Assembly (NCBI GenBank): GCA_021777225.1
Contig: JAJYDQ010000041.1
Span: forward strand, 1-36,299
Length of the DNA stretch: 36,299 nt
Origin: Deltaproteobacteria bacterium
GTDB taxonomy: Bacteria > Desulfobacterota > Desulfomonilia > Desulfomonilales > Desulfomonilaceae
Direction of reading: 5' to 3'
The notes under the pieces are model-generated. The model had not been told where the DNA came from, did no database searches, and saw only the letters and a program-made list of their open reading frames with translations. Below, piece by piece: positions 17,390-35,634 of this stretch. Every line of letters begins with the position of its first letter. Position 1 is the first letter of the stretch. The position numbers and the translations under genes are program-made.

Positions 17390-17512
17390 AAATCACTATC
17401 ACCCCTACGTCTTCCTACGTAGGCAGACGGCCCTGTGGCTTTCTTAGTTACAGGGCCTGAACATTTTTAGCACACATGGCGACCCATTGCGTATATAGAT
17501 GAGTTCAATTTT
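17390..17512 (+). repeat. Structured direct repeat, copy 2
   Basis: The second copy of the ~122-bp element, same orientation as 16433-16554. Its central stem is GGCCCTGT with ACAGGGCC, fully Watson-Crick where copy 1 uses G-U pairs, and the loop sequence differs. The copy extends through the ATG at 17499 and about 14 bases into the following ORF. It could be a structured 5' leader that was duplicated together with the start of that gene, or a mobile palindromic element. Confidence 0.7.
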
Positions 17513-18305: not shown

Positions 18306-19229
18306 ATGCTTTTCAGCAAATACGAATTTTGTTCCATTTTCAATGACGAAGCGATCCTGCCACCCTATAAAGGATCAACGTTTAGAGGGGCGTTCGGAGT
18401 CGCGTTGAAGAGGGTTACCTGCGCTCTCAAGCAGAGAGATTGCGTGGCTTGTCCTTTAACTCAGCGTTGCGTTTATTTTCGGGTTTTCGAAAACTCGTCA
18501 AATGACAGAGGAGAAAAAACGGCTAATAAGCCTCACCCATTTGTGATTGAACCGCCGGAAACTACAAAACAACGTTTTGATAAAGGCGATGATTTTAATT
18601 TCTCTTTGCTGCTGTTTGGCATTGCTAACAGCTATTTACCCTATTTCATTTATGCGTTTGAAGAGATGGGTAAGGTGGGTTTGGGCAAGTTTATCGAGGG
18701 GAAACGGCCCGGCTTTATTCTGACACGGGTAAACTCAGACAATAAAGAAGTTTACAATAGCGCAGACCGTTTAGTGCTGACAGGATCAGAAATCGACATG
18801 GCGTTCGACAATGGTCCTGTGGATGATGATCAAGAGATTGAGTTATCGATTCGACTTGAAACTCCTTTGCGGCTCAAATTTGAAAATAGCTTTCAGACCC
18901 AATTACCTTTTCACGTATTGGTACGATCGATGTTGCGTCGTATCGCCATACTTAATGAACACTTCGGTTCAGGGGAACCGCTTCTGGACTACAAGGGGCT
19001 CGTAAACAGAGCGCTCAAAGTCACCGCAGACAAATCATCTCTTCGATGGCTTGATTGGGCGCGATTTTCAAACCGTCAGCAGTCCAGAATGCAGTTCGGA
19101 GGACTCATAGGAGAAGTCACTTATAGCGGCAGGCTGAAGGAATTTGTGCCGCTTATCAAATATTGCGAAAAAGTTCATTTGGGAAAAGCTACTACGTTTG
19201 GACTGGGAAAGATAAGGCTTGTCCATTAG
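18306..19229 (+). CDS. cas6: CRISPR pre-crRNA endoribonuclease Cas6
   Basis: Cuts the repeat transcript to give crRNAs. The 307-residue RAMP protein has an N-terminal segment with KGSTFRGAFGVALKR (about 22-36) and a Cys cluster (C39, C46, C49, C55; CVACPLTQRC) shared by many Cas6 proteins of this branch. The C-terminal domain ends in a glycine-rich loop (LGKATTFGLGKIRL, near residue 292 onward) typical of the Cas6 RNA-binding fold. It is the first gene of the type III-A operon on the plus strand, followed by an 88-bp gap and cas10. The crRNA 5' handle would be the last eight bases of the repeat (ATTGCGAC). The catalytic residues cannot be named from sequence alone. Confidence 0.88.
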   Translation: MLFSKYEFCSIFNDEAILPPYKGSTFRGAFGVALKRVTCALKQRDCVACPLTQRCVYFRVFENSSNDRGEKTANKPHPFVIEPPETTKQRFDKGDDFNFSLLLFGIANSYLPYFIYAFEEMGKVGLGKFIEGKRPGFILTRVNSDNKEVYNSADRLVLTGSEIDMAFDNGPVDDDQEIELSIRLETPLRLKFENSFQTQLPFHVLVRSMLRRIAILNEHFGSGEPLLDYKGLVNRALKVTADKSSLRWLDWARFSNRQQSRMQFGGLIGEVTYSGRLKEFVPLIKYCEKVHLGKATTFGLGKIRLVH

Positions 19230-19317
19230 CCTAAGGAGAATGCCAAGCATCGTTTTATTAGAAGCATGTAGGCGTTAACCCGACAGAAGCCATCTGCGTA
19301 AATTGAAAGGAGGATCA

Positions 19318-21936
19318 ATGGATGACACTACCTTAAAAAATCAGTTGGGCGGTTTCTTCCACGATGTTGGAAAGATACCTGGAAAGGAGGACTTGGATCT
19401 CGGCGCAGAGTATGTCAGCAGGAATCAAGACATTTATCAACCGAGTTTTGATGGACGATTTTCACATGCTCACAGTTTGCTCACAGCGGCATTCATTGAA
19501 AAATTCGCCGACGTCTTGCCGCGGGAATTCAATGAACCGGGATGGGGAGATGGTGATTCATTCATAAATCTTGCTGCATGCCATCATAAACCAGAAACCC
19601 CTATGCAATGGATTGTCACGGTCGCTGACAGGATCAGCGCTGGTTGGGATCGAGCAAGTTTTGACGCCAAACATGATGCAAAAATAGCAGTCAAAGAATA
19701 TCAAAAAACCCGACTATTTTCCTTATTTGAGAAACTTGATCCAGATGGAGAACAGGGTGAACCGGGACATAAATCAGAATATGCGTACGAACTTAAGGCA
19801 CTTTCTCCGGAAACCATATTCCCCAAAAAATTGGGGAATATCAAACCGCTGAGCACGGAACAGGCCCGAAGCGAATACTCAGAATTGTTTAAACAATTCT
19901 GCTCGCAACTCGGCAATCTGGCGCATCGCAACGAGAATCTGGAACTGTGGTTTGAACATTTTGACAGTTTGTTTCTTGTATATTTCTCGTCTGTGCCGGC
20001 TGCTCGCGCTGGTGAAATTATTCCTGACGTTTCGCTTTATGATCATAGTAGGAGTGTCGCCGCATTAGCCGGAGCGCTCTATGTTTACCACCGCGACACA
20101 AATTCACTGACAGAACAATCTGTCCGAAATATGGATCAGAAGAAATTTCTGCTTATCCAGGGTGACTTTTTCGGAATTCAGGACTTTATCTTCAAGACAT
20201 CCGGTGATCTTAGAAAACTGCGATCCAAGCTCCTTCGTGGGCGGTCTTTCGCTGTTTCACTGTTTTCAGAGCTTGCAGCGGATATGATATGCCGTGAAAT
20301 TGGACTCTCGTTCGCTTCAGTTGTCCTGAACGCTGCGGGCAAGTTCACAATTATAGCTCCAAATGTGGACCGGGCTGGACAAGCGGTTAAAAACGTCGAG
20401 AAAACAGTCAATGACTGGCTTATGAAATTTACTTATGGTCAGAATACATTCGGTCTGGCTACATGCGAAGCGTCGGGCGCCGAATTCCTAGAGGGCAAAT
20501 TTGTTGGACTGCGATCCGAGCTGCAAAGAAGAATGGAACTGAAAAAGTTGAATCGAATCAACTTGGGAGCATTTGGTGGAGTTGTGGCGGGCTATTTGGA
20601 CTCGTTCAATAATGATCTTGAACCTGCTCTTTGTCCTCTGTGTGGTAAGCGGCCAGCCACTTCCGATGCGTCAACCGATGGTTTACTGGGTGATATTGCT
20701 TCGGCGTGCAACATATGTCGAGACGACGTTTTTCTGGGAACTAATGTGGTCAAAAAACCCAGGGTGGCCATTCTTGACTCACAAACGACGTTCTTGGATA
20801 AAAACAATTGCTTACTTGAACCTATTTTTGGCCGTTACCAGGTTTCTTTCGTTGAGAAAGGAAATTTGACTAAGCAAGCGGCTCATGGAAGCCTCCTGAG
20901 ATTTTGGGATATAGCTCCAGACCTTGGCCCAGAATCGATCCGTGAGATTACAGCAAAGTTTATCAATGGTTATGTGCCAGTTTTTACAGAAGAAGACAAA
21001 TATCGTGATCAATATTTGGCGGGCGAGAAAGCGGAGTCGCGGACTTCTGAGATGCTTGACCAAATCGAGATTGGATCGCCAAAAACCTTCCACCACATTG
21101 CGGCTATGGCATTAAACCCCGTTGTTTCCAGAAATGACAAAATGGATTTCAAGGGAGTGGCTGCGCTAGGGGCTCTCAAAGCCGATGTTGACAATTTAGG
21201 GGCATTGATGTCGTTTGGACTGCCTCAGAAGGAATTAACTCTGTCACGATTGGCTACGTTGAGCAGGCAAATCAACTTCTATTCTAGCATCTATCTGCCA
21301 CACTTGCTCCGGTCTACGCCGACATTTAACGACATCTATACTGTCTTTGCAGGAGGCGATGATCTTTTCGTAATTGGCCCGTGGAATAGAACTATAGATT
21401 TAGCCAGAGAATTATCCACTTCATTTAGAGATTATGTTTGCCATAATCCAAAGATCACTTTTTCCGCCGGTTGTATAGTCAAAAAACCAAATGCGCCGGT
21501 CGATAAAATAGCTGAACAAGTCGAATACGCATTGATGGAGGCAAAAGACTTGGGCCGAGATCGGTTAACGATTTTCGCTCAAGCAATACCATGGGCCGGT
21601 CTTAACGAAATGGACACGATAAAAAGGACGCTCACCGACTGGTACGAGAATCAGTGGATAAACAACGCAATGCTCTATCGGCTCAACGGATTCATCGATA
21701 TGGCAGACAGGGAAAGTCATTTAGGGGATGGCAATGTTTTGCTTTCTGACATGGATTGTGTGAAATGGCGTTCCTATCTGGCTTATACTTGTGAACGAAA
21801 TGTCGCGAAGGATGGTTTTTCAGGCAATCGCAAAGACATAGTCAAAAATGTCAATCAACAACTTGCTATGTGGTTGACACATTTAGGGGCAAAATTACGA
21901 ATTCCTCTGTGGGAAATCCTTTATAACAAGCGATAG
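19318..21936 (+). CDS. csm1: Type III-A Cas10/Csm1, HD nuclease and cyclase
   Basis: The large subunit of the Csm complex: cuts ssDNA through its HD domain and makes cyclic oligoadenylates through its Palm domain when target RNA is bound. The 872-residue protein has an intact HD motif at H15-D16 (GGFFHDVGKI), a Zn knuckle starting C439-xx-C442 (CPLCGKRP, with a second CNIC pair downstream) and an intact cyclase motif GGDD at 679-682 (VFAGGDDLFVI). Both activities are thus expected. The start is the ATG at 19318 with AAGGAGG four bases upstream; a TTG fifteen bases earlier lies inside that ribosome site and is rejected. Ten bases separate it from csm2. Confidence 0.95.
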   Translation: MDDTTLKNQLGGFFHDVGKIPGKEDLDLGAEYVSRNQDIYQPSFDGRFSHAHSLLTAAFIEKFADVLPREFNEPGWGDGDSFINLAACHHKPETPMQWIVTVADRISAGWDRASFDAKHDAKIAVKEYQKTRLFSLFEKLDPDGEQGEPGHKSEYAYELKALSPETIFPKKLGNIKPLSTEQARSEYSELFKQFCSQLGNLAHRNENLELWFEHFDSLFLVYFSSVPAARAGEIIPDVSLYDHSRSVAALAGALYVYHRDTNSLTEQSVRNMDQKKFLLIQGDFFGIQDFIFKTSGDLRKLRSKLLRGRSFAVSLFSELAADMICREIGLSFASVVLNAAGKFTIIAPNVDRAGQAVKNVEKTVNDWLMKFTYGQNTFGLATCEASGAEFLEGKFVGLRSELQRRMELKKLNRINLGAFGGVVAGYLDSFNNDLEPALCPLCGKRPATSDASTDGLLGDIASACNICRDDVFLGTNVVKKPRVAILDSQTTFLDKNNCLLEPIFGRYQVSFVEKGNLTKQAAHGSLLRFWDIAPDLGPESIREITAKFINGYVPVFTEEDKYRDQYLAGEKAESRTSEMLDQIEIGSPKTFHHIAAMALNPVVSRNDKMDFKGVAALGALKADVDNLGALMSFGLPQKELTLSRLATLSRQINFYSSIYLPHLLRSTPTFNDIYTVFAGGDDLFVIGPWNRTIDLARELSTSFRDYVCHNPKITFSAGCIVKKPNAPVDKIAEQVEYALMEAKDLGRDRLTIFAQAIPWAGLNEMDTIKRTLTDWYENQWINNAMLYRLNGFIDMADRESHLGDGNVLLSDMDCVKWRSYLAYTCERNVAKDGFSGNRKDIVKNVNQQLAMWLTHLGAKLRIPLWEILYNKR

Positions 21937-21946
21937 GAGGCTTGGA

Positions 21947-22348
21947 ATGACAGACATACAGTTCGTAAAATCTGACGACACAATTGATCCAAAGCTTTTT
22001 TCAGATGAAGCCGAGGCAATGGCAATAACTGTGAAAAAGGATTATGAGGCAAGCAAAGAAAGACAGAATCGAAGGTCACAGATTAGGAAATTTTATGACG
22101 AAATCATAAGATTGGAATCGATTGTGGAAAATCGACCCGAGTCTTGGTCTGTTGTTCTGCCTCAGATTCATATGTTAATTGCCAAAGCAGCCTATGCGCA
22201 AGGCAGAGGACTTGTTTCAATGACTTTTCTGAATTTTATTAGGAATTCCGTCAAACAGGTGGATACTCCCCGAAAACTTAGAATATTCTCAAACTTTTTT
22301 GAAGCCTTTATGGGGTTTTATAAATTCCATTGTCCAAAAAGCAACTAG
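21947..22348 (+). CDS. csm2: Csm2, small subunit of the type III-A complex
   Basis: The helical small subunit that lines the complex next to the crRNA-target duplex. The 133 residues include the family-typical QIRKFYDEI segment (about residues 45-53) and a later AAYAQGRG...FLNFI region. AGGAGG lies nine bases before the ATG. It sits between csm1 and csm3, the conserved order, which supports the call. Confidence 0.9.
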   Translation: MTDIQFVKSDDTIDPKLFSDEAEAMAITVKKDYEASKERQNRRSQIRKFYDEIIRLESIVENRPESWSVVLPQIHMLIAKAAYAQGRGLVSMTFLNFIRNSVKQVDTPRKLRIFSNFFEAFMGFYKFHCPKSN

Positions 22349-22360
22349 AGGAAAATCAAA

Positions 22361-23068
22361 ATGAAGCTAACATCAATAACGGAAATCAGGGGTTCGATTA
22401 TACTCAAAAGTGGTTTACATATAGGCGCTGGTGACATGGAAATGAAAATAGGTGGTGTTGACAACGCTGTCATCAAACATCCACATACTCAAACACCGTA
22501 TATACCGGGTTCCTCCATCAAGGGGAAAGTGCGTTCTTTGTTGGAAATGAGAAGTGGTTTGATGGGGCAAACCGGAGGAAAGCCCGTTTCGGTCAAAACA
22601 CTGAACAGCCTTTCGGGCGAACAGAAATACGAGTGTGAAAAAATTCTCAAGCTGTTTGGCTGTAGCGGAGCGGATTCGGAAGAAAACGTCAAACTTGGGC
22701 CAACTCGAGTTTCATTCGCCGATTGTTCCATGAATGGAGCGTGGGTTGAGAATTGTGCTGTACGAAACCTGCTACTCACTGAAGTTAAGTCTGAAAATTC
22801 GATTAATAGAATAAAAGGGACCGCAGAAAACCCGAGATTCACTGAGAGGGTACCAGCGGACGCAAAATTTGATTTCGCCGTGACTGTCAAAATGCTGGGT
22901 GATGAAGACGACCTCCTTGATTACCTTCTTGAGGGTTTAAAATTACTAGAATTGGATGCCCTAGGCGGTAGCGGCAGCCGTGGCTATGGTCGAATTGAAT
23001 TTCAGTTCGATGATGACAAAATAAGGGAGAAATTTGAAAATTTGGCGCCCTTCAAAAAGGAGGGATGA
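22361..23068 (+). CDS. csm3: Csm3, backbone RAMP and target-RNA nuclease
   Basis: Forms the repeated backbone of the Csm complex and cuts target RNA every six bases. The 235-residue protein has the G-rich segment IGAGDMEMKIGGVDNAV with D34 in GGVDN, the position of the catalytic aspartate in characterised Csm3 proteins. PYIPGSSIKGKVRS follows, and the C-terminal LGGSGSRGYGRI is the RAMP glycine loop. The catalytic Asp is present, so RNA cleavage is expected. The next gene starts four bases after the stop. Confidence 0.94.
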   Translation: MKLTSITEIRGSIILKSGLHIGAGDMEMKIGGVDNAVIKHPHTQTPYIPGSSIKGKVRSLLEMRSGLMGQTGGKPVSVKTLNSLSGEQKYECEKILKLFGCSGADSEENVKLGPTRVSFADCSMNGAWVENCAVRNLLLTEVKSENSINRIKGTAENPRFTERVPADAKFDFAVTVKMLGDEDDLLDYLLEGLKLLELDALGGSGSRGYGRIEFQFDDDKIREKFENLAPFKKEG

Positions 23069-23072
23069 AATC

Positions 23073-24110
23073 GTGAAACTCTATGATGTGACTATTCACC
23101 ATCTGGCTGCGTTTGGAACGCCGCTCAAAGGTGACACCTTATTCGGGCAGTTCTGCTGGCAATTGGCATATGATTCAAATTTGGTAGACGGTGGTCTCGA
23201 ACACAACCTTGACTTTTATCAAGAGGCGCCGTTCCTCGTAATTTCTTCAGCGTATCCAAAGCTTAAGGCTGCAACAGGTCAATATCTTTATGCTTTAAAG
23301 AAGCCGGATTTGCCTTTTAACGTATTGTTTCCTGAGCTGAAAGACGATTTGCGAAAGCAAGTGGAAGAACGTAAAATCATCAAGAGCAAGAAATGGATGC
23401 GCTTGTCTTCGGATTTGACCATAAATGTCAAGAAACTCCAATTTGTTAGTGACTCCGAACTAATCGATACTGCGCCTGAAAAGCAGATCAACAAAGTTAC
23501 CGTCATTGAAAAAACCGGCGACGGCCAGACGTTAATCAAATCCTTTGCTCAACCGCACAACTCAATAAATCGGGTTACCGCCACCACGGGAGGAGGGGCC
23601 CAGTTTGCTCCGTACCAAACGGAGTTGTTCATTTATAGCCCCAGTACCCTCCTGAGTGTCTTCGTCTTGCTGAATGAAAAACTGACTGACGTTCAAAGGG
23701 TCGTCGCGGGTTTTTCAAGGATTGGCTCCTATGGTTTCGGAAAAGACGCATCCATAGGCAAAGGCCGTTTTCGTGTGGAGAGTTTTCGAGAGTTGACGGC
23801 GCCTAAAATACTTGACGCCAACGGATTATACTGTCTTTCGCCTTGTGTGCCTAAATCTGGCTCTTACTCTGACGCGTTTTACCATCCGTTTGTTCGATTC
23901 GGTAGGCATGGTGACAGCGCGGCAAGTTCATCAAATCCATTTAAGAACCCTGTCATAATGGCTGATGAGGGCGCAGTTTTTGTGCCGACGCAAAAAGATG
24001 ATCTGACTCGTGGTTATTTTGGTTCAGGCATGACAGGTGTTTCAAAGCATCAGCCGAAAGCTGTAGCGCAGGGTTATGCCATTAGCCTGCCACTTAAAGT
24101 GGAGGTTTGA
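23073..24110 (+). CDS. csm4: Csm4, crRNA 5'-handle-binding RAMP
   Basis: Binds the crRNA 5' handle and joins the backbone to Csm1. The 345-residue protein has GTPLKGDTLFGQFCWQLAYD (about residues 12-31) at the N-terminus, the Csm4 hallmark, and a G-rich GFSRIGSYGFGKDASIGKG loop near residues 213-231. I place the start at GTG 23073, since the Csm3 stop lies at 23066-23068 and AAGGAGGG is nine bases upstream; the frame also opens inside csm3 without a ribosome site. It overlaps nothing and is followed after one base by csm5. Confidence 0.93.
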   Translation: MKLYDVTIHHLAAFGTPLKGDTLFGQFCWQLAYDSNLVDGGLEHNLDFYQEAPFLVISSAYPKLKAATGQYLYALKKPDLPFNVLFPELKDDLRKQVEERKIIKSKKWMRLSSDLTINVKKLQFVSDSELIDTAPEKQINKVTVIEKTGDGQTLIKSFAQPHNSINRVTATTGGGAQFAPYQTELFIYSPSTLLSVFVLLNEKLTDVQRVVAGFSRIGSYGFGKDASIGKGRFRVESFRELTAPKILDANGLYCLSPCVPKSGSYSDAFYHPFVRFGRHGDSAASSSNPFKNPVIMADEGAVFVPTQKDDLTRGYFGSGMTGVSKHQPKAVAQGYAISLPLKVEV

Positions 24111-24111
24111 T

Positions 24112-25623
24112 ATGACTTCTCCCGAAATAGTTTATAAGACCCCGCCCGTTTCAAAAGCACCATCTTCTTCCATGGGCCAAGGCCGCCAGAATAAGGTTAC
24201 GATAGAATTTGCCATTCAGACACTTTGCCCTGTCCATCTTGGATGTGATGACGTGTATGATCCGCTGAGTTTTGTTCTAGACATGGAGAAATCGGAACTG
24301 ATAGTTTTTGATACATCCGAATTCCTAACGAACCTAAGTGATACTGATCTTAGGGAATTTTCAAAAATCTGCAGCGAGGGTAACCTATCCTCAATAATCA
24401 AAATATACAAGTTTATGCGTGACCAGAGGCCACTGGGCAAGCGAGTAGGCGTATGCAGTGGTTTCTCAAGGCATTATGAAAAAGCCGTTTCAATCTCAGA
24501 AAGAGACCAAAGAAAAATTCAGCAAGAACTCAACGGTTTTATTATCAATAGAACCGCTTACCTACCAACAACAGACCGTCCCTACATTCCTGGATCCGCT
24601 GTCAAGGGATCCATCAGAACGGCTTATCTGAATTTGTTGGCGTCCCAGCGAAAAGTAAATCCGGAACGAGGGAAAGGGAGAGACCTTGAGAAACAGTTGC
24701 TTGATAACGGAGCGTTTGCAACAGATCCCTTTCGGCTGTTGAAAGTTTCAGACTTCATGCCTGTTGGTGAGATCAAGACTAAAATTGTTTACGCAGTCAA
24801 TGAAAAGAAAAAACCTAGCCTCCATGAAGCAAAAGGACCATATCAGATACTTGAAATTATTGAGCCGAATAGCCTGTTTATGGGGTCAATCACCGTAGAA
24901 CAGCCAGCACATGAGGCTAGCATTAGAAACCCTCTCAAAATTGGGACACTTATCGCTAGCCTTAAGTCATTTTATTCCAAGGAAAAAACCCTTGAGGATC
25001 AGGCGCTGCAAAACGTCAATATCCCAGTTCATGAAGCGGCGCCCAATGGCGCCACTTTATTGCGGCTTGGTAGACATTCAGGCGCTGAATCGGTGACCAT
25101 AGAAGGTTTTCGAGATATCAGGATCATGCAGGGACGAGGCGCACAGAGCAAGTATCAGCAAACCTCGACCACCCTGTGGCTAGCTTCTGAGGTCGACAAA
25201 CCTCAAAACAAGAGTTCATTGAAACCATTTGGCTGGACCACTCTAACGCCAATAGACGCAGACCAAAAGGCGCAATTCGTTGCAAAGGAGGTCGATTGGA
25301 GGCGTATTGCAGAGGACGACCGTTCTGTCGCTTTGCAACAGATTCAGGAACGCATGAGCATCATGACTGAAAAAGGAGATAGGTCTACCGTAACCAAGCC
25401 ATCAGTCCCAAAACCACCACAATCCGAGACATGGAAAGGGGCGACGCTAACCTGGAATCCCGGTCGGGCAGAATTGATAGCTCAATTTGGGACCCAAAAA
25501 GCGTTCTCAAAGGATAAAGAGCTTGTTCCCGAGGCTAAACGAAAAAATCTCTTCGTTAAGAAAAAAGGCGTCACATGCGATGTGGAAGTAGACGGCTCGT
25601 TCAAGATCACAAAAATTGAGTGA
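24112..25623 (+). CDS. csm5: Csm5, distal RAMP subunit
   Basis: Caps the 3' end of the crRNA in the Csm complex and helps its maturation. At 503 residues it is longer than many Csm5. It has an N-terminal CPVHLGCDDVYDPLSFV region (about 38-54), YIPGSAVKGSIRTAYLN (about 160-176) and a C-terminal stretch with GWTTLTP. The residues after about 420 (many K, P, S) form an extra tail ending in a small beta-rich segment. The start is ATG 24112 with GGAGG six bases upstream, two bases after the csm4 stop. Confidence 0.92.
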   Translation: MTSPEIVYKTPPVSKAPSSSMGQGRQNKVTIEFAIQTLCPVHLGCDDVYDPLSFVLDMEKSELIVFDTSEFLTNLSDTDLREFSKICSEGNLSSIIKIYKFMRDQRPLGKRVGVCSGFSRHYEKAVSISERDQRKIQQELNGFIINRTAYLPTTDRPYIPGSAVKGSIRTAYLNLLASQRKVNPERGKGRDLEKQLLDNGAFATDPFRLLKVSDFMPVGEIKTKIVYAVNEKKKPSLHEAKGPYQILEIIEPNSLFMGSITVEQPAHEASIRNPLKIGTLIASLKSFYSKEKTLEDQALQNVNIPVHEAAPNGATLLRLGRHSGAESVTIEGFRDIRIMQGRGAQSKYQQTSTTLWLASEVDKPQNKSSLKPFGWTTLTPIDADQKAQFVAKEVDWRRIAEDDRSVALQQIQERMSIMTEKGDRSTVTKPSVPKPPQSETWKGATLTWNPGRAELIAQFGTQKAFSKDKELVPEAKRKNLFVKKKGVTCDVEVDGSFKITKIE

Positions 25624-25626
25624 AGA

Positions 25627-26016
25627 GTGACTAAACTATTTCTAATATTCAATCATGAATTTACTGATGATCAAGTTGCCGATGCCCGGGTAACGCTCGG
25701 GGTCGGCCCAATTTTAAAATTGCCCGATGAGTTACAGGATCTTTGGGCCAACATCCCACCTGATCTTCCGGCGATACGGCCTTATCTCCAACCTCTGATG
25801 GATTGGCTGAGTTCTGTAGCCAACCCCAAAGACTATACCCTCGTCCAAGGGGATTTCGGGGCCTGTTACATTATGGTCAATTGGGCCTTAAGACATGGGT
25901 CCATTCCAATTTATTCAACTACAGAAAGAATAGCTCAGGAATCGGTCGCTGATGACGGTTCCGTCGTCAATACACACAAGTTCAAACATGCAATTTTCAG
26001 AAAGTACGGGGGTTAG
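25627..26016 (+). CDS. csx20: Csx20 family protein, possible ring nuclease
   Basis: A 129-residue protein matching my recollection of Csx20: MTKLFLIFNHEFTDDQV at the N-terminus, a LPDELQDLWANIPPDL stretch (about 33-48), VQGDFGACYIMVNWAL (about 79-94) and a C-terminal KFKHAIFRKY. Csx20 proteins occur in type III loci and have been proposed to degrade cyclic oligoadenylate, limiting the toxic signal. The start is GTG 25627, three bases after the csm5 stop, and its own stop is one base before the Csx1 ATG. This tight pairing with the cOA-activated RNase supports a regulator role. The catalytic activity is inference. Confidence 0.75.
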   Translation: MTKLFLIFNHEFTDDQVADARVTLGVGPILKLPDELQDLWANIPPDLPAIRPYLQPLMDWLSSVANPKDYTLVQGDFGACYIMVNWALRHGSIPIYSTTERIAQESVADDGSVVNTHKFKHAIFRKYGG

Positions 26017-26017
26017 G

Positions 26018-27295
26018 ATGGCGAGAGTATTTATATCGGTCTTAGGCACTACCAAATATGGAGAGTGCTCATATTGTTTTGGCGAGCAGCCCATATGTCA
26101 CAGCGTGAGATTTGTTCAGGAAGCGCTGGTAAATCACATTTGCTCCAATTGGGGAAAAGATGATCGAATAGTCGTGTTGGCGACGGACCTGGCATATGAA
26201 AAAAACTGGTTGGACAATGGTCACGGGGACGAATCACCTGGTCTGGCAACGCTACTCAGAGCATCAGAACCGGAAGTGAAAGCGAAGATTGAGGAACCCG
26301 TAATAATTCCATTTGGAAAGGACGGAGACGAAATCTGGGATATTTTTGACAGAATATTGAGCATTTTTGCCCCAAATGACAAGGTGACTTTCGATATCAC
26401 TCACAGTTTCAGGTCATTGCCCATGCTGGTCATGACAGTGCTGAACTACGCCAAGGTGATTAAGAACATTGAGATAGAAGGTGTTTATTATGGCAACTAC
26501 GAAGCACGCAATATGGCTTTAAATCGTGCGCCTGTTTTTGATCTCAAGGTTTTTGACAATCTCTTGAACTGGACGGTAGCCATCGATGCATTTTTGTCAT
26601 CTGGTGACGCTTCTAAAGCCGTAAGACTAGCAAAAGGAAAAGCTGATACAATTGCTAGGGCGAAAAAAGGTTCCGATCCTTTGATAAAGCCCCTTAGAAA
26701 GATAGCGAGCTGTTTGGAAGAATTCAGCAAAACCATGTCGACATGCAGGGGGACCGCAATTTCAGACAGTGTCAATAAACTCAAGAATTCAATTCATGAA
26801 ACGAATGATATCAAAATGGATCCAGCCTTCAAACCCCTTCTTAAACACCTCGAGGCCCGACTTCAAACATTCACCGGCTCAAAGATCGATGATGGGATTC
26901 GAGCAGCGGAATGGTGTGCACAACATAATCTTGTCCAACAGGGCTTCACAATTTTGCGCGAGTTCATGATTGGCTATGTTTGTAACGGTTACGGGACGGA
27001 TCCAGAGGATTACCCTGCACGTAAAAGAATTGAGGACTGCATTGGATCGGATGTCCATGCATGGAGCGAGCACAAGAAAAATAAACGGAAGAAGATTGAC
27101 GACTTAGATATAGCGCCGCCATTGATGATTCTAAAAGGAAAACCCGAATTGCTAGATCTGTTCGGTCGTCTTTACGATTGCCGAAATGACATAAACCATG
27201 CTGGTATCAGAAAGAGCCCCTCGGATCCAAAAACATTAATTGATGGATTGAACGAACTGATTTCACAGGCCAGAACCCTGGTTTTAAAAAATTGA
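26018..27295 (+). CDS. csx1: CARF-HEPN ribonuclease, Csx1/Csx2 (TIGR02221-like)
   Basis: An accessory effector: the CARF domain binds cyclic oligoadenylate made by Csm1 and switches on the HEPN RNase. The 425 residues start MARVFISVLGTTKY; the DxTHG-type motif is DITHS at 126-130, followed by FRSLPMLVM. The C-terminal HEPN domain has R389-NDIN-H394, an R-x4-H catalytic motif. I chose ATG 26018, one base after the csx20 stop; the frame opens 66 bases earlier inside csx20 but the conserved N-terminus begins here. It takes the place of csm6, which is absent. Which ring size it senses cannot be read from sequence. Confidence 0.88.
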   Translation: MARVFISVLGTTKYGECSYCFGEQPICHSVRFVQEALVNHICSNWGKDDRIVVLATDLAYEKNWLDNGHGDESPGLATLLRASEPEVKAKIEEPVIIPFGKDGDEIWDIFDRILSIFAPNDKVTFDITHSFRSLPMLVMTVLNYAKVIKNIEIEGVYYGNYEARNMALNRAPVFDLKVFDNLLNWTVAIDAFLSSGDASKAVRLAKGKADTIARAKKGSDPLIKPLRKIASCLEEFSKTMSTCRGTAISDSVNKLKNSIHETNDIKMDPAFKPLLKHLEARLQTFTGSKIDDGIRAAEWCAQHNLVQQGFTILREFMIGYVCNGYGTDPEDYPARKRIEDCIGSDVHAWSEHKKNKRKKIDDLDIAPPLMILKGKPELLDLFGRLYDCRNDINHAGIRKSPSDPKTLIDGLNELISQARTLVLKN

Positions 27296-27314
27296 GCTTA
27301 CATAAAACGCAATT

Positions 27315-27503
27315 CCCAGGCCTTCAGCCTGGGCTGATATAATACGCCCCTTCAGGGCTTAATAATGATGTGATGTTGTCAATCAACATATTATGATCGG
27401 TCGGGTTGGTCAAATTGGTTGATGTATGAAACGTTATTGTCGAAACGTGCATTTAACGAGCCCTGAAGGGGCGCCTGAATCCAGCCCAGGCTGAAGACCT
27501 GGG
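27315..27503. repeat. REPIN-like palindrome 1
   Basis: Two REP units in inverted orientation, 27315-27362 and 27453-27503, about 90 bases apart. Each unit holds two small hairpins: CCCAGGC...GCCTGGG and GCCC-CTTCA-GGGC. The right unit is nearly the complement of the left. Confidence 0.8.
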
Positions 27504-27693
27504 GGATGGGTGAAAGAAACAAACGCCCCCGTCCCGGTAATGATTGAATTGGTTTATGGCCAGGACTCGTAATTCGCCGATTGACGGTGTCGGGAAATTA
27601 TTGTGAACCGGGGATGTGTTCGGGATGTTGGGACACATGAACCGCCCTTGGGGTTGGTGTCATGGCGCTAACATGGTACACATTCGCCACAAA
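27504..27693. other. Spacer between the two REPIN-like elements
   Basis: 190 bases with no gene. A weak inverted repeat (ATGTGT...ACACAT, about 27610-27640) is the only structure I see. Confidence 0.4.
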
Positions 27694-27806
27694 CCCCAGG
27701 CCTTCAGCTTGGGCTGATATAAAACGCCCTTACAGGGCTTAATTTTGATTTGATATTTAAGAGCCCTGAAGGGGCGCCTGAATCCAGCCCAGGCTGAAGG
27801 CCTGGG
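27694..27806. repeat. REPIN-like palindrome 2
   Basis: The same two units as the preceding palindrome, 27694-27742 and 27757-27806, only 14 bases apart, so the whole element can fold into one long imperfect hairpin. It ends 20 bases before the transposase start. Confidence 0.8.
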
Positions 27807-27826: not shown

Positions 27827-28279
27827 ATGCCACAATCATTGGCAAGAATTTATGTTCATGTGGTGTTTGGCACAAAACACAGGATTCCATGGTTGGTCGA
27901 TAAGATACGACCAGAGATTTTCACCTTTATGGCCGGATCGCTCAATCAAATGGGTTCTAACCCTGTTTGTATTGGAGGCGTATCGGATCATGCTCACCTG
28001 TTGTTCAGGCTTTCGAAGAGCCACTCCCTGAGCAGGGTAGTCGAAAGGGTAAAAACAGATTCATCCATCTGGTTAAAAACCCAGAGAGAGGATTTCCTGG
28101 ATTTTGGTTGGCAAAACGGTTACGGGGCGTTTTCTGTTGACCAATCGAACCTGGAAGCTGTGAGGAAATATGTTTCAAACCAGAAACAGCATCACCAGCA
28201 CCTTTCGTTCAAGGATGAAGCAAAACGAATTTTTATTGCCCACAAACTTGAATACGATGAAAAATACTTTTGGGATTGA
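27827..28279 (+). CDS. REP-associated Y1 (IS200-type) transposase, RAYT
   Basis: A single-strand HUH transposase of the Y1 family. The 150 residues show the HUH pair H55-x-H57 in GGVSDHAHLLF and the nucleophilic tyrosine Y115 in AVRKYVSNQK, with N-terminal IYVHVVFGTKHRIPWL typical of the IS200-like group. All expected catalytic residues are present, so it may be active. G-rich bases stand at a usable distance before the ATG. Its two REPIN-like palindromes next door are the expected substrates. It sits inside the CRISPR locus, between csx1 and the CAPP gene, and probably inserted there. Confidence 0.88.
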   Translation: MPQSLARIYVHVVFGTKHRIPWLVDKIRPEIFTFMAGSLNQMGSNPVCIGGVSDHAHLLFRLSKSHSLSRVVERVKTDSSIWLKTQREDFLDFGWQNGYGAFSVDQSNLEAVRKYVSNQKQHHQHLSFKDEAKRIFIAHKLEYDEKYFWD

Positions 28280-28326: not shown

Positions 28327-30246
28327 ATGATCAATGATCCTCTTCTGTCTCAAGTCAAAGCCGCATTAGATTCCGGTTTGTCTGACGAAGCTCTCAATAT
28401 CGCGCAATCCCGCAATACCAGAGATATAGCGGACGCAGACCTGCATCTTGCCTGGGCTGACATTCTTGAAGAACTCGTAACCACAGATGACGTGATATTC
28501 GAGTTGAACCTTGCCTTGCGAGACGATCCGGAACGGATTTCCACTTACGAACGTCTGTCAGAAGTTTACCTTGACCAGGGGCAGCCACAGAGGGCGGCAA
28601 GGGTCCTTACCAGGCTCGTTGAGAAACAACCAGATGATCCGCAACATTATGAAGCGTTAGGGTCGGCTCTGAAAGAGGCGCGGCAATTTGAAAAAGCTCG
28701 AGAAGTTTTTGAGGCTGCGCTGAAAAAAACCGGTGATTCACGATTTAGCGGATTCATAAAAGAACTCAGTTTTTTGGAAAGATCTGAAACTGAACATCGC
28801 GGGAGGATGGCGGATGGTCCAGGTCAGATTGAGCCAGCCAAGCATAACTTGATAACATTTACAACGCTGTTCGCTAGCCGGGAAGGAGTTTACGCAAGAC
28901 AGTGGGTCAGTCCTACAGGTGAATCCGGATACACTCCAATTCAGGAGCCCCTTACAGTTACGGTAGCGGAAAATCATATTCTCGGAAATTACACAATAGG
29001 AGCCTATCCAGTTCGCTTGGATAATAGCGTAAATTACATAGCTTTCGATTTTGACGTCGCAAAATTTGCGGTTGCCAAGGCAATCTCGAGTGAAAAGCTA
29101 TGGAACGCCGTCATAAATAAAGTCCATTCCGCAGCGTGTAAATTGGTGGACGTCTCGGCCGCGAATGAAATCCCAATATATATGGAGGATTCAGGATTCA
29201 AAGGCCGACATTGCTGGATATTCTGTGAAAGGGCAGTGCCGGCCGGAGTAGCGAAAAAATTCGCTGATCTCCTGGTAGCTCAAATCCTGCCGTTGCCGAA
29301 CGAAGTCACTGTTGAGGTTTTCCCGAAACAAACGTCAGTAAAAAGAGGAGGGCTTGGCAATCTCATAAAACTGCCGTTAGGCATTCATAAACGTACAGGT
29401 AAGCGCTCTCTTTTTATTCAACCGGATGGGACGCCATATGAGGATCAATTGAATTTTCTAGAGTCTGTGAGCAAGGCTTCGAGGAGGACTGTTTATGGTT
29501 TGATTCAGCGGATTTCCGCTGGGGTATCTCCTCGTGTAATTGCTGAACAAAATGAAGTTGAGGAAGCGCCGCCTTTCGATATTGGCGCAGAAGACAGACC
29601 GAGCGCCCCTGCCCACAATTACAAACACACATACGAGCCCCCGTATGATATAGATAGCGACGCCCAGTTCCAGCAACTTATGCTGAAGTGCCCAACATTG
29701 AAGGCTATTGTGGACAAAGTCAATCAAACTTCTATGTTATCCAAGGAAGAAACGCTTGTTCTTGTCCATAGTCTAGGGCACATGAAGCGCGGCCCGGAAG
29801 CTGTAAACACAATATTTCAGCGGTGTATGAACGCCGACCCTTCACTTTTTCTCAAATCACAACTTAAGGGTAATCCCATAAGTTGTCCCAAGATCAAGGC
29901 TAGGGTCCCAGAAATAGTTACGCGTGTGCCCTGCGACTGCACTTTCGATATGTCTGTAAATCTTTACCCGACACCAATCATTCATCTCAGAAATATGCAA
30001 GGCGCAGGCCGCTCTGAAACACCACTTGGCCTGACCGTGGATTCATTGCAGTTTCAGAATCTTGTCCAGGATTACCTGAAGCTGCGTAAACAGCTCCGAG
30101 AAACACAGTTGCTTTTAAAGAAATATGAAGAGAACCTTCGGAATTTCTTCGAAGAAGCCGGAGTAGATTGTGTGGAGACACCGGTTGGTCAACTACGGCG
30201 CCAGAAGAAAGAATCAGGGGAAATCTCATTTGTTTTAGAAATATGA
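28327..30246 (+). CDS. CRISPR-associated primase-polymerase (CAPP) with TPR N-terminus
   Basis: A 639-residue archaeo-eukaryotic-type primase-polymerase expected to work with Cas1-Cas2 during spacer acquisition, possibly making DNA from RNA or DNA templates. Residues 1-140 are TPR-like helical repeats. The primase core follows, with D241-x-D243 (AFDFDVAKF), the S289...H295 motif (SGFKGRHCWIF) and E330 in VEVFPK, so the three AEP metal/nucleotide motifs look intact. Residues ~445-540 contain C455, C500, C520, C536 and C538, a layout like the Fe-S domain of PriL (inference). A coiled-coil-like tail ends the protein. The start is ATG 28327 with GGAG eight bases upstream; an upstream in-frame ATG at 28270 overlaps the transposase. 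cas1 follows after 43 bases. Confidence 0.85.
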   Translation: MINDPLLSQVKAALDSGLSDEALNIAQSRNTRDIADADLHLAWADILEELVTTDDVIFELNLALRDDPERISTYERLSEVYLDQGQPQRAARVLTRLVEKQPDDPQHYEALGSALKEARQFEKAREVFEAALKKTGDSRFSGFIKELSFLERSETEHRGRMADGPGQIEPAKHNLITFTTLFASREGVYARQWVSPTGESGYTPIQEPLTVTVAENHILGNYTIGAYPVRLDNSVNYIAFDFDVAKFAVAKAISSEKLWNAVINKVHSAACKLVDVSAANEIPIYMEDSGFKGRHCWIFCERAVPAGVAKKFADLLVAQILPLPNEVTVEVFPKQTSVKRGGLGNLIKLPLGIHKRTGKRSLFIQPDGTPYEDQLNFLESVSKASRRTVYGLIQRISAGVSPRVIAEQNEVEEAPPFDIGAEDRPSAPAHNYKHTYEPPYDIDSDAQFQQLMLKCPTLKAIVDKVNQTSMLSKEETLVLVHSLGHMKRGPEAVNTIFQRCMNADPSLFLKSQLKGNPISCPKIKARVPEIVTRVPCDCTFDMSVNLYPTPIIHLRNMQGAGRSETPLGLTVDSLQFQNLVQDYLKLRKQLRETQLLLKKYEENLRNFFEEAGVDCVETPVGQLRRQKKESGEISFVLEI

Positions 30247-30289
30247 GAATTTCCGTGTCCAGCGCGGAAAGCGAAGGGATTGAGGGCGT

Positions 30290-31339
30290 GTGGCGATATT
30301 ATATGTTACCGAACAGGGATCGTCATTAACCAAGCAGGGTGATCGTCTTGTGGTGATGAAGCAGGGCAAGGCGATACACTGGGCGCACGCATTCAAAGTG
30401 GAGCAGGTTGCTTTGATGGGGAATATTTCCCTGTCTCCTGCTGTTGTCGGATTCCTGTTGGAGCAAGGGATTGATACGGTTTTTCTGACTTATTTTGGAC
30501 GTTACCGAGGTCGCCTGATTTCGCAATTTGGCAAAAATATCGAACTAAGGCGGCAGCAGTTCAAGAAGATTGATGACCTGGAATTCAAACTCAAACAAGC
30601 CCGATCATGCGTAAAAGGAAAAATCAATAATTGCCGGGTGTTTCTTAGGCGCAGGAACCAGGAATTTAACAATCCTGACATTACCAACGCAGTCCATAGA
30701 TTAAGACGGTTGGCTTCGCAGGTTGATTCTGCCGACTCAGTTGAATCACTGATGGGGGTAGAGGGCGCTGGCGCAGCGGCTTATTTCGGTTCCTTCGGAA
30801 AATTAATAAAAAATTCTAATGTAGTTTTTTCAGGTCGTAATCGGCGGCCGCCGAAAGACCCTGCGAATGTCTTGCTCAGTCTGGGCTACACTCTTCTCGC
30901 TAACGCCATTCATACACAGGTCAATATTGTGGGGCTCGACCCGTATCTGGGGTGCCTCCACAGTGCAGAATACGGACGACCATCTCTAGTGCTCGATCTC
31001 ATGGAAGAATTCAGACCGGCCCTTGTGGATTCGACTGTCATATATGCGGTAAATACTAATATTATCAAGCACACCGATTTTTATAAACCGGATGAACGCG
31101 AACCAGCGGCATTTGATTTTGCGGAAAAGGAACCGCTTCGCGAGGAATATCCAATTCTGCTGAGACATGAAGGTATGAAGAAGTTTGTTTCATTATTTGA
31201 GGATCGGCTTAACAGAAAGGCGATTCACCCTGCGAGAGGCCTGAGGTTGACATACCGAAATATTCTTCTCGAACAGGTTCGAATGTTTGCTCGAACCATC
31301 ACCGATGAATCGGCATACATTCCATTCACGATAAGGTGA
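30290..31339 (+). CDS. cas1: CRISPR integrase Cas1
   Basis: Integrates prespacers at the leader-repeat junction together with Cas2. The 349-residue length is usual. The metal ligands are E158 (GVEGAGAAAYF), H224 (LGCLHSAEYG) and D236 (LVLDLMEEFRP). The N-terminal beta-rich domain starts ILYVTEQGSSL. The start is GTG at 30290 with GAGGG just upstream. It is not fused to a reverse transcriptase; the separate primase-polymerase gene precedes it. cas2 follows after 22 bases. Confidence 0.96.
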   Translation: MAILYVTEQGSSLTKQGDRLVVMKQGKAIHWAHAFKVEQVALMGNISLSPAVVGFLLEQGIDTVFLTYFGRYRGRLISQFGKNIELRRQQFKKIDDLEFKLKQARSCVKGKINNCRVFLRRRNQEFNNPDITNAVHRLRRLASQVDSADSVESLMGVEGAGAAAYFGSFGKLIKNSNVVFSGRNRRPPKDPANVLLSLGYTLLANAIHTQVNIVGLDPYLGCLHSAEYGRPSLVLDLMEEFRPALVDSTVIYAVNTNIIKHTDFYKPDEREPAAFDFAEKEPLREEYPILLRHEGMKKFVSLFEDRLNRKAIHPARGLRLTYRNILLEQVRMFARTITDESAYIPFTIR

Positions 31340-31361
31340 TCCTTGTAGTTTGGAGGCCTGA

Positions 31362-31637
31362 TTGTTTGTAGTTGTTTCCTATGATATCGTTGATGACAAG
31401 AAAAGGCTACGTGTTGCTAAATTGCTCAAGAGTTATGGAGAACGAGTTCAAAAGAGTGTATTTGAATGTAGACTGGATGATAGACTCTATTTGAAGATGA
31501 AGCGAGAGATCGAAAAAATAATTGATTGGGAAGAAGACGGGGTCAGGTATTATATTTTGTGCGCCGGTTGTCTTAAAAATGTTGATATCAGTGGTGTTGG
31601 CTATGTTCGAGACGACGAGGATGTCATTGTTGTTTAG
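31362..31637 (+). CDS. cas2: CRISPR adaptation protein Cas2
   Basis: A ferredoxin-fold dimer that bridges two Cas1 dimers. The 91 residues begin FVVVSYDIVDDKKR with D8 in the conserved position, followed by GERVQKSVFEC. The start is TTG at 31362, supported by GGAGG at 31352-31356. It is the last protein gene before the leader and array. Confidence 0.95.
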   Translation: MFVVVSYDIVDDKKRLRVAKLLKSYGERVQKSVFECRLDDRLYLKMKREIEKIIDWEEDGVRYYILCAGCLKNVDISGVGYVRDDEDVIVV

Positions 31638-31864: not shown

Positions 31865-34800
31865 GTTGGACGGAGAGACCCGATTAGAGGGGATTGCGAC
31901 TTAAAACGCCCTCTCAATTCCATTGGTTGACAGCTTGTTGTTGGACGGAGAGACCCGATTAGAGGGGATTGCGACTTTTCCGAACCGGATTGAAGCAAAA
32001 CGGGCTCCACGTTTGTTGGACGGAGAGACCCGATTAGAGGGGATTGCGACTTACTTTCCTGATTATGCCGTCGGGGCATTGAACGGCGGGTTGGACGGAG
32101 AGACCCGATTAGAGGGGATTGCGACGTAATCAAACCACTGTATTTGTTTTTCTCACCAATAAAAAGTTGGACGGAGAGACCCGATTAGAGGGGATTGCGA
32201 CGTAAACTTGCGCGCTAATCGCATTGTCTGCTAATTTCACGTTGGACGGAGAGACCCGATTAGAGGGGATTGCGACTCAACGGCGTCTAGTGTTAGCATG
32301 AAATCTCTAAGTCTTTGTTGGACGGAGAGACCCGATTAGAGGGGATTGCGACTTAGGGAGCAGAGTAGTCACTCTCCTATGACTATTTCTGGTTGGACGG
32401 AGAGACCCGATTAGAGGGGATTGCGACATCTAGCATCCCCTGAGACACATGTTTAGGAAGAAGTGGGTTGGACGGAGAGACCCGATTAGAGGGGATTGCG
32501 ACATATATCAGATGGTCGGCTTCGCATAATCCGGCGCAATAAGTTGGACGGAGAGACCCGATTAGAGGGGATTGCGACTTCAATTCCGCTTTTTTGAAGT
32601 TGAGAAAATGTCATAAGGGTTGGACGGAGAGACCCGATTAGAGGGGATTGCGACTTCCTCTTCTCACCCTTATGTTTTACTGTCAGCTTCCCGGTTGGAC
32701 GGAGAGACCCGATTAGAGGGGATTGCGACTCTTCCGGCCATCTTCAGTGCGGCAGAATAATTGTTTGTTGGACGGAGAGACCCGATTAGAGGGGATTGCG
32801 ACAATGATTGCCTTTACCTTGCTGTTGCTCAAAGAAATAGGTTGGACGGAGAGACCCGATTAGAGGGGATTGCGACTGAATGAAAAAAATCACCTTAAAA
32901 CCTTTAAGGGCGCAGTTGGACGGAGAGACCCGATTAGAGGGGATTGCGACTCAGGTTTCATAGCGTAACAGACTTCTCGACATTTACGTTGGACGGAGAG
33001 ACCCGATTAGAGGGGATTGCGACTTAGGATGATAAATCTAGTCCCAAGCTTGGAGTTTCCAGTTGGACGGAGAGACCCGATTAGAGGGGATTGCGACTGT
33101 ATTGATACAGGATCATCTTATGGTATTGGAATACAAGTTGGACGGAGAGACCCGATTAGAGGGGATTGCGACAATTGCGCCTGCGTGATATGTCCTTGCG
33201 ACAAGCACAGTTGGACGGAGAGACCCGATTAGAGGGGATTGCGACACTAAACACAATCCTTGTTTCCTGGATTCACATAGAAATGGTTGGACGGAGAGAC
33301 CCGATTAGAGGGGATTGCGACCACTTAATGTCAAATTTCTGTAAAACTGAGCATACATACGTTGGACGGAGAGACCCGATTAGAGGGGATTGCGACAAAG
33401 TTAAAAACATCAACATAGCGTTCAAATTTATCACAGTTGGACGGAGAGACCCGATTAGAGGGGATTGCGACCCATTAGCTGATTTGCAAGCTTTGCAAAG
33501 ATTTAAGATGTTGGACGGAGAGACCCGATTAGAGGGGATTGCGACCAAAACCAGTCATGGATATCTGACCATTCAATCCTATACCGTTGGACGGAGAGAC
33601 CCGATTAGAGGGGATTGCGACTACTATTAACAAGTTTTGACGCTATTGTTAGCATCCTGTTGGACGGAGAGACCCGATTAGAGGGGATTGCGACCATACG
33701 CTAACTTCTCGACACAATCTTGATTCAATAAATGTTGGACGGAGAGACCCGATTAGAGGGGATTGCGACACAAACCTTAAAGGACAACAAAATACATTCA
33801 ATTGCAGTTGGACGGAGAGACCCGATTAGAGGGGATTGCGACAGAAGATGGTTCCACACTTGGCGCATATTTTCTCTGCGTAGTTGGACGGAGAGACCCG
33901 ATTAGAGGGGATTGCGACAACCTGGGTTTAGACCCTCTACATTAGGCAGGGGAACAAAGTTGGACGGAGAGACCCGATTAGAGGGGATTGCGACTAATCC
34001 GGCACAATAGGCTGATAGGCCGCGGTACTCAAGTTGGACGGAGAGACCCGATTAGAGGGGATTGCGACTAATCCGGCACAATAGGCTGATAGGCCGCGGT
34101 ACTCAAGTTGGACGGAGAGACCCGATTAGAGGGGATTGCGACGTGCTTCGGCTTTTGTGTTAATTCTGGACATGGCGCTAGTTGGACGGAGAGACCCGAT
34201 TAGAGGGGATTGCGACTAACAAGGCAAAGACCTTTTGCTCTTGATGAGCACATGAGTTGGACGGAGAGACCCGATTAGAGGGGATTGCGACTAACTGCTT
34301 GTTATACTCATACAAGACTGCTATTCGGTTGGACGGAGAGACCCGATTAGAGGGGATTGCGACTTCACCAGCTCGGTGAAATATTTCTCGTTAACTGTTT
34401 TGTTGGACGGAGAGACCCGATTAGAGGGGATTGCGACTCAGGCACAAAGTGTTGGCCACAGTTTCCGCAATACTGTTGGACGGAGAGACCCGATTAGAGG
34501 GGATTGCGACTTACTTCGTCATTCTATCTAAAATAGCTTGGAATTGTTGTTGGACGGAGAGACCCGATTAGAGGGGATTGCGACTCTTCAAGTTGTTTTC
34601 TGGTTGGTGGCATTATCCCATCCGTTGGACGGAGAGACCCGATTAGAGGGGATTGCGACTTTAATAGATGAGCGCAAAATGGCGGTTTTTAATCCCGCGG
34701 TTGGACGGAGAGACCCGATTAGAGGGGATTGCGACCATTTGCCTTCTCCTTTTTTATAAAACTTCAAGGTAATGTTGGACGGAGAGACCCGATTAGAGGG

Positions 34801-35634
34801 GATTGCGACAAAACCATGAACAGAATTATGGTCAATTGTTACCTGAATAGTTGGACGGAGAGACCCGATTAGAGGGGATTGCGACTTCAACTGTAACTTT
34901 CATAGCGTTTACCCCTTTTTTAGTTGGACGGAGAGACCCGATTAGAGGGGATTGCGACGAATTCCCATTAATCTTGGATATCCGCCATTGAAAATAAGTT
35001 GGACGGAGAGACCCGATTAGAGGGGATTGCGACGTAAGTTTTCCAGGCTATCCAAGTTAAACGTTGCCAGTGGTTGGACGGAGAGACCCGATTAGAGGGG
35101 ATTGCGACGTTTTTACTGAGTTCCGCATCTCAGTTTGTGTCCTGTGGGTTGGACGGAGAGACCCGATTAGAGGGGATTGCGACCTAACATGTCCATAATC
35201 TGATCTATGGCAGCGTCATCAGGTTGGACGGAGAGACCCGATTAGAGGGGATTGGGACAACAAGGCAAAGATTCAATACCCTCGACATGCAATTTGTAGT
35301 TGGACGGAGAGACCCGATTAGAGGGGATTGCGACAATTCCGCCGCTTGTCCCGATTTTATTAATGCCATTAAAAGTTGGACGGAGAGACCCGATTAGAGG
35401 GGATTGCGCCATAGCGCATCGCATCGCTGGAAAGCACAAAGTAGCGAGGTTGGACGGAGAGACCCGATTAGAGGGGATTGCGACGTATTTTCGCTTTGAA
35501 ATTCGTTCAATTGCGGTTTTGGAGTTGGACGGAGAGACCCGATTAGAGGGGATTGCGACTTCAATGAATGATTCTTTAGGATTACCCGTGGAGAGTATGT
35601 TGGACGGAGAGACCCGATTAGAGGGGATTGCGAC
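31865..35634 (+). CRISPR. CRISPR array, 51 repeats of 36 bp and 50 spacers
   Basis: The repeat starts GTTGGACGGAGAGACCC and ends GAGGGGATTGCGAC. Repeats begin every 72-76 bases and spacers are 36-40 bases. Almost all copies are identical; the exceptions I found are at 35223-35258 (TGGGAC end) and 35375-35410 (TGCGCC end), both near the right side. Spacers 29 and 30 (33995-34032 and 34069-34106) are identical. Transcription left to right gives a crRNA handle ATTGCGAC, like the common ATTGAAAC. The repeat has only weak internal pairing, as expected for type III repeats. The array is served by the adjacent type III-A genes. Confidence 0.99.

What the first reader, a model, noticed from the sequence alone, without database searches (positions are those of the whole stretch)
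28327..31637. TPR-primase-polymerase with a PriL-like cysteine domain beside cas1-cas2
The gene before cas1 encodes TPR repeats, an AEP primase core with all three motifs (D241/D243, S289-H295, E330) and a C-terminal Cys region (C455, C500, C520, C536, C538) resembling the Fe-S domain that replicative primases use to initiate. Known CAPPs associate with Cas1-Cas2 in type III loci that lack a reverse transcriptase. A TPR-PriS-like-PriL-like single-chain architecture would be a self-contained primase acting in spacer acquisition, perhaps copying RNA-derived prespacers.
Basis: partly seen in the sequence, partly recalled or inferred. Interest (0 to 1): 0.7.

Follow-up and report, generated by a model that had tools for sequence, protein, structure and literature searches.

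The report
CRISPR-associated primase-polymerase (CAPP type A1)
The gene encodes a known kind of DNA-copying enzyme that sits beside the CRISPR memory-making genes; its cysteine-rich tail does look like the initiation domain of our own primase, which is a testable refinement rather than a new system.

Summary
It is not a new kind of protein. NCBIfam scores it above cut-off as 'CRISPR-associated primase-polymerase type A1' and PADLOC as 'adaptation polymerase'; its core models as the solved Marinitoga CAPP (Z 32.5, 1.6 A). The TPR-AEP-cysteine-bearing CTD architecture was published in 2021, and a Pri2/PriX-like role for the CTD has been proposed. The PriL resemblance gains support here: C455, C520 and C538 are invariant in 37/37 homologues that carry the domain, the P-x-[SG]-C-x-K-I and C-x-F motifs match human Pri2 Cys367 and Cys384, and the top structural matches to the modelled CTD are Pri2 Fe-S domains (Z about 6, moderate). 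C500 and C536 are clade-specific, so the fourth ligand is uncertain; iron-sulfur is unproven. RNA-derived prespacers are unlikely: published CAPPs prime poorly on RNA and no reverse transcriptase was found in this genome.

The parts
28327..30246 (+). CAPP type A1 gene, 639 aa (TPR - AEP - PriL-like Cys domain - Gam/Gp157-like tail)
   Evidence: NCBIfam NF040561 E 5.6e-91, 305.6 bits vs cut-off 200; PADLOC PDLC01101 E 1.2e-95
28327..28806 (+). N-terminal TPR domain, residues 1-160
   Evidence: Pfam TPR_19 and others; all-helical in the AlphaFold2 model, pLDDT mostly 93-98
28834..29526 (+). AEP/Prim-Pol catalytic core, residues 170-400
   Evidence: PF22548 E 1.1e-49; 7nqd/7nqf by sequence E 3e-33; 7nqf_B Z 32.5, rmsd 1.6, 219 residues
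29047..29055 (+). motif I, D241-x-D243
   Evidence: D in 36 of 39 homologues
29191..29211 (+). motif II, S289...H295
   Evidence: S 38/39, H 36/39
29314..29316 (+). motif III, E330
   Evidence: 38/39
29644..30009 (+). PriL-like cysteine domain, residues 440-561
   Evidence: AlphaFold2 CTD model, pLDDT 93-97 over most of 445-505 and 525-535; best PDB alignments are Pri2 Fe-S domains, Z 5.7-6.4
29689..29691 (+). C455, proposed counterpart of human Pri2 C287
   Evidence: invariant in 37/37 homologues with the domain
29824..29826 (+). C500, conserved only in part of one clade
   Evidence: 17 of 38
29884..29886 (+). C520, proposed counterpart of human Pri2 C367
   Evidence: invariant; P-x-S-C-x-K-I motif shared
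29932..29940 (+). C536-x-C538; C538 proposed counterpart of human Pri2 C384, C536 a candidate fourth ligand
   Evidence: C538 invariant; C536 in 20 of 38
30052..30243 (+). C-terminal Mu Gam/Sipho_Gp157-TOTE domain, residues 576-639
   Evidence: PF22709 E 4.7e-20; in 15 of 33 CAPP homologues
30290..31339 (+). cas1
   Evidence: PF01867 E 7.9e-92; the only cas1 found in the genome
31362..31637 (+). cas2
   Evidence: PF09827 E 5.2e-25
31865..35634 (+). CRISPR array, 51 repeats of 36 nt and 50 spacers of 36-40 nt; 227-bp putative leader after cas2
18306..27295 (+). type III-A interference operon: cas6, cas10/csm1, csm2, csm3, csm4, csm5, csx20, csx1 (CARF-HEPN)

Best explanation
The gene is a CRISPR-associated primase-polymerase of type A1 (CAPP_A, TPR type) serving the sole Cas1-Cas2 module of a type III-A system. 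Inferred from characterised CAPPs: it binds Cas1-Cas2, makes a short DNA strand starting with a ribonucleotide on single-stranded DNA to yield double-stranded prespacers, and may fill gaps after integration. Its C-terminal domain (440-561) is proposed to be a trimmed PriL/Pri2-type domain that steadies the initiating nucleotide, held together by a metal site built on C455, C520 and C538 plus a fourth ligand (C536 in this clade), probably an Fe-S cluster. The TPR part and the Gam-like tail are proposed to mediate partner, self or DNA-end contacts. Shown here: sequence membership, catalytic motifs, operon, conserved triad, PriL-like model fold. Shown in other CAPPs: priming, polymerisation, Cas1-Cas2 binding. 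Inferred: the metal, its ligands, the CTD role and the function of the tail.
For: NCBIfam equivalog above cut-off; PADLOC adaptation polymerase over residues 9-591; core equals solved CAPP core; CAPP-cas1-cas2 cassette in 35 of 38 relatives; low dN/dS, 0.038, against the nearest homologue, with dS near saturation; invariant C455/P517/C520/I523/C538/Y547/P550. PriL likeness: top aligned PDB chains 8v6g_C Z 6.4 over 116 residues, 8g9l_B 6.3, 5f0q_B 6.0, 4rr2_D 5.7, and a cryptochrome at 5.9, a fold reported to share architecture with Pri2 (title of PMC2852410); viral library top hits include an AE_Prim_S-like phage protein (prob 1.00) and an archaeal-virus primase large subunit (prob 0.92); shared P-x-[SG]-C-x-K-I and C-x-F motifs with Pri2 C367 and C384; profile chain CAPP CTD to haloarchaeal/viral AEP CTD P 2.9e-5, and that to PriL P 3.9e-4. 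Activities and interactions of Marinitoga CAPP.
Against: Direct sequence similarity of the CTD to PriL is weak: no PriL hit in Pfam for any member, no PriL hit in a PDB profile search, hhalign P only 0.005-0.04 to human or Sulfolobus PriL. Foldseek alone gives E 3-7 for Pri2, and Z near 6 for a helical domain can be a common arrangement. No counterpart of the fourth Pri2 ligand C424 was found; C500 and C536 are absent from one of two clades. The published core primes without the CTD, so the domain is not essential in vitro. Nothing has been tested on this protein.
Confidence: 0.8

Rival explanations
1. The CTD cysteines bind zinc (or form a purely structural knuckle) rather than an Fe-S cluster, and the domain mainly mediates dimerisation and Cas1-Cas2 contact.
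For: CTD-CTD self-association was seen for the Marinitoga CAPP, whose primase buffer contains ZnCl2; only three cysteines are universal; an aligned H553, present in 35 of 38 sequences, could be a ligand.
Against: Closest fold and motif matches are Fe-S domains of primases, and related viral/haloarchaeal AEPs carry a four-Cys version.
Confidence: 0.3
2. The CTD is a member of the PriCT family and only distantly PriL-like; cysteines were retained without a cluster role in several lineages.
For: Zabrady et al. label it PriCT; PriCT-1/2 were themselves argued to be related to the PriL Fe-S_N part; low sequence scores to PriL.
Against: Three cysteines are invariant across 37 diverse homologues down to about 20% identity, which is hard to explain without a shared function.
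Confidence: 0.2
3. The protein copies RNA-derived prespacers, standing in for a reverse transcriptase.
For: Type III systems target RNA (established knowledge); no reverse transcriptase is found in this genome and only one cas1.
Against: Both characterised CAPPs prefer DNA templates and Marinitoga CAPP cannot efficiently prime on RNA; RNA-templated priming in CAPP-RT fusions is done by the RT domain.
Confidence: 0.05

Closest known systems
CRISPR-associated primase-polymerase (CAPP) type A1 / CAPP_A TPR type, e.g. Marinitoga piezophila MpCAPP
   Same: TPR - AEP - cysteine-bearing CTD, same catalytic motifs, upstream of cas1-cas2 in a type III locus; above the NCBIfam cut-off
   Different: 639 aa against 546 aa (CTD numbering); carries a recognisable Gam/Gp157-like tail, whose presence in Marinitoga was not tested; type III-A rather than III-B, no Argonaute gene recognised in the window
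PriL/Pri2 C-terminal Fe-S domain of archaeo-eukaryotic primase
   Same: Model fold over about 116-119 residues, order of three Cys, P-x-S-C-x-K-I and C-x-F motifs
   Different: Fused to the catalytic chain, shorter; no counterpart of the fourth ligand C424; not recognised by PF04104
PriCT-2 and PriL-like C-terminal domains of phage and haloarchaeal AEPs
   Same: Same position behind the AEP core and four-Cys layout (PMC5862659)
   Different: Those proteins lack TPR repeats and sit in viral contigs or a plasmid, not beside cas1-cas2
TOTE conflict-system AEP
   Same: AEP-TOTE (PF22548) and Mu_Gam-Sipho_Gp157-TOTE (PF22709) domains
   Different: No helicase part in this protein; TPR repeats and CRISPR context instead

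Membership tests
CAPP type A1 | Scores above the curated NCBIfam NF040561 cut-off | tested here: met
   305.6 bits against cut-off 200, residues 17-595
CAPP type A1 | AEP core with motifs I-III and CAPP fold | tested here: met
   D241/D243, S289/H295, E330; 7nqf Z 32.5, 33% identity
CAPP type A1 | N-terminal TPR repeats | tested here: met
CAPP type A1 | C-terminal region with conserved cysteines | tested here: met
   C455, C520, C538 invariant
CAPP type A1 | Operon with cas1-cas2 in a type III locus | tested here: met
CAPP type A1 | DNA primase/polymerase activity and Cas1-Cas2 binding | not testable with these tools
   known only for other CAPPs (PMC8211822)
PriL/Pri2 Fe-S domain | Match to PF04104 DNA_primase_lrg | tested here: not met
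   no PF04104 hit for any of 36 CTDs at E up to 10
PriL/Pri2 Fe-S domain | PriL C-terminal fold | tested here: inconclusive
   Pri2 chains head the list, Z 5.7-6.4 over 116-119 residues, but Z under 8 in a helical domain is not decisive
PriL/Pri2 Fe-S domain | Four Cys cluster ligands | tested here: inconclusive
   three invariant Cys at matching motifs; fourth is C536 or C466 by clade or missing, C424 has no counterpart
PriL/Pri2 Fe-S domain | Bound [4Fe-4S] cluster | not testable with these tools
   needs spectroscopy
TOTE conflict system | AEP-TOTE and Gam/Gp157-TOTE domains | tested here: met
   PF22548 and PF22709 above cut-off
TOTE conflict system | Helicase or nuclease modules as in helicase-fused TOTE proteins | tested here: not met
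   no helicase or nuclease domain in the 639 aa
RT-based RNA spacer acquisition | Reverse transcriptase in the locus or genome | tested here: not met
   no RVT_1 match in a 97.6% complete genome

The most novel reading that the evidence does not exclude
CAPP type A CTDs are true, shortened PriL-type [4Fe-4S] domains with three universal cysteines and a lineage-dependent fourth ligand, so a replicative-primase initiation module, together with a Gam-like DNA-end-binding tail in one clade, was assembled on a single chain for prespacer synthesis in CRISPR adaptation.
Probability: 0.4. Interest if true: 0.5.

Novelty: new member of a known kind. Interest (0 to 1): 0.33.

Why it matters
CAPPs are the dedicated polymerases proposed to make prespacers for Cas1-Cas2, and what their C-terminal domain does is open. 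The conserved triad, the two-clade fourth-ligand pattern and the Gam-like tail turn that into simple mutant and spectroscopy tests. If an Fe-S PriL-type domain is confirmed in a bacterial CRISPR enzyme, it would give a single-chain system for asking why primases keep an Fe-S cluster that the CAPP core does not need in vitro.

Tried and rejected
Direct HMMER searches of the CTD against Pfam and PDB found no PriL; hhalign with one to three PriL sequences was weak. A proper PriL alignment from archaeal genomes could not be assembled: scans of viral contigs and plasmids with Sulfolobus PriL found nothing, PF04104 is absent from 198 genomes of the phylum, and 'of' takes only genome handles. PolpTN2 of pTN2 was tested as a bridge; it has one Cys and no match. 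C466 and C536 looked mutually exclusive (36 of 38), which suggested a ligand swap, but the tree shows two clades and few changes, so it is not independent evidence; C466 also lies about 11 residues along the same modelled helix from C455, which makes co-ligation doubtful. Phage records hold no relative.

Full report
What is there. The ORF at 28327-30246 encodes 639 aa. cas1 follows after 43 bp and cas2 22 bp later. Upstream lies a complete type III-A set: cas6, cas10/csm1, csm2-csm5, csx20 and a CARF-HEPN csx1. Downstream is an array of 51 repeats and 50 spacers that starts 227 bp after cas2.

What it is. NCBIfam NF040561, 'CRISPR-associated primase-polymerase type A1', matches at 305.6 bits against a cut-off of 200, and PADLOC's adaptation polymerase model covers residues 9-591. 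By sequence the closest solved structures are 7nqd and 7nqf, the Marinitoga CAPP core (E 3e-33); the AlphaFold2 model superposes on 7nqf at Z 32.5, rmsd 1.6 over 219 residues. Zabrady et al. 2021 (PMC8211822) describe exactly this order: TPR, AEP, and a CTD 'containing conserved cysteine residues', upstream of cas1-cas2. So the architecture is known.

Recurrence. Among 395 genomes of the phylum, 102 hold an AEP-TOTE domain. Of 38 CAPP-like relatives taken out with their flanks, 35 have cas1 alongside; two of the other three are cut by contig ends. The catalytic residues hold in 36-38 of 39 sequences. Against the nearest homologue (81% identity) dN/dS is about 0.04, though dS is near saturation. 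This is a functional, conserved cassette.

The cysteine domain. In 37 homologues plus the window protein, after leaving out one truncated sequence, C455, C520 and C538 never vary; nor do P517, I523, Y547 and P550 in the 36-row alignment. C500 is present in 17 and C536 in 20 of 38; one clade lacks both and has a Cys near 466 instead. The CTD alone models well. Second-look alignment puts Pri2 Fe-S domains first: 8v6g_C Z 6.4, 8g9l_B 6.3, 5f0q_B 6.0, 4rr2_D 5.7, plus a cryptochrome at 5.9. Pri2 and photolyase were reported to share active-site architecture (title of PMC2852410). Against viral models the first and fourth hits are an AE_Prim_S-like phage protein and an archaeal-virus primase large subunit. 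In sequence, N-P-I-S-C520-P-K-I and C538-T-F line up with T-P-F-S-C367-L-K-I and C384-P-F of human Pri2, whose four cysteines in this stretch are 287, 367, 384 and 424. Haloarchaeal and viral AEPs carry intermediate four-Cys versions: CAPP CTD to these P 2.9e-5; these to PriL P 3.9e-4. Direct comparison with PriL is weak. I read this as a probable but not proven PriL-type domain with an unproven metal site.

How it probably works. For Marinitoga and Dysgonamonadaceae CAPPs it is shown that they prime with a ribonucleotide first, extend with dNTPs, displace strands and bind Cas1-Cas2. The proposed use is making double-stranded prespacers from single-stranded DNA and filling in after integration. 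All determinants of initiation lie in the core, with a Pri2/PriX-like assisting role modelled for the CTD. I transfer this to the window protein by family membership. The function of the Gam-like tail, present in 15 of 33 homologues scanned, is inference.

The RNA idea. This genome has one cas1 and no detectable reverse transcriptase, so RNA-derived spacers would need CAPP itself to copy RNA. Both tested CAPPs use RNA templates poorly, and Marinitoga CAPP cannot efficiently prime on RNA; in CAPP-RT fusions the RT domain does it. I consider the idea unlikely, though this protein is untested.

Novelty. New member of a known kind. I found no report of an Fe-S cluster test on a CAPP in the held papers; the 2022 structure paper on primer initiation was not held.

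Noticed in passing
27310-27806 and 27827-28279: A Y1 (IS200-like, possibly REP-associated) transposase gene sits directly before the CAPP gene, next to diverged palindrome-like repeats (27310-27377/27690-27757 and 27453-27503/27756-27806, 85-94% alike) between csx1 and the transposase.
   Followed up: no
33995-34142: Spacers 29 and 30 of the array are identical, and spacer 9 shares a similar stretch (TAATCCGGCGCAATAA); no exact match of the duplicated spacer in viral contigs.
   Followed up: partly
12600-15977: Large protein with an RNase_H_2 domain and superfamily 1 (AAA_11/AAA_12) helicase domains, encoded on the opposite strand upstream of the type III operon.
   Followed up: no
17499-17858: Small NYN-like ORF that matches PADLOC's HEC-09 model (E 8.4e-21) just before cas6.
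   Followed up: no
L102:4102-6081: AEP-TOTE protein in another genome of the phylum that runs on into a reverse-transcriptase-like part with a YVDD motif (read by eye), with CAPP-like CTD similarity between them.
   Followed up: no
L103:7956-9146; L106:1788-2870; L113:5968-6828; L114:5785-8919: AEPs on a Halobaculum plasmid and on viral contigs carry a four-cysteine PriL-like C-terminal domain outside any recognised CRISPR context.
   Followed up: partly
window 9988-11880: ORF joining an HMGL-like (acyltransferase-type) domain with a C-terminal Cache/PDC sensor-like stretch, an unusual combination.
   Followed up: no
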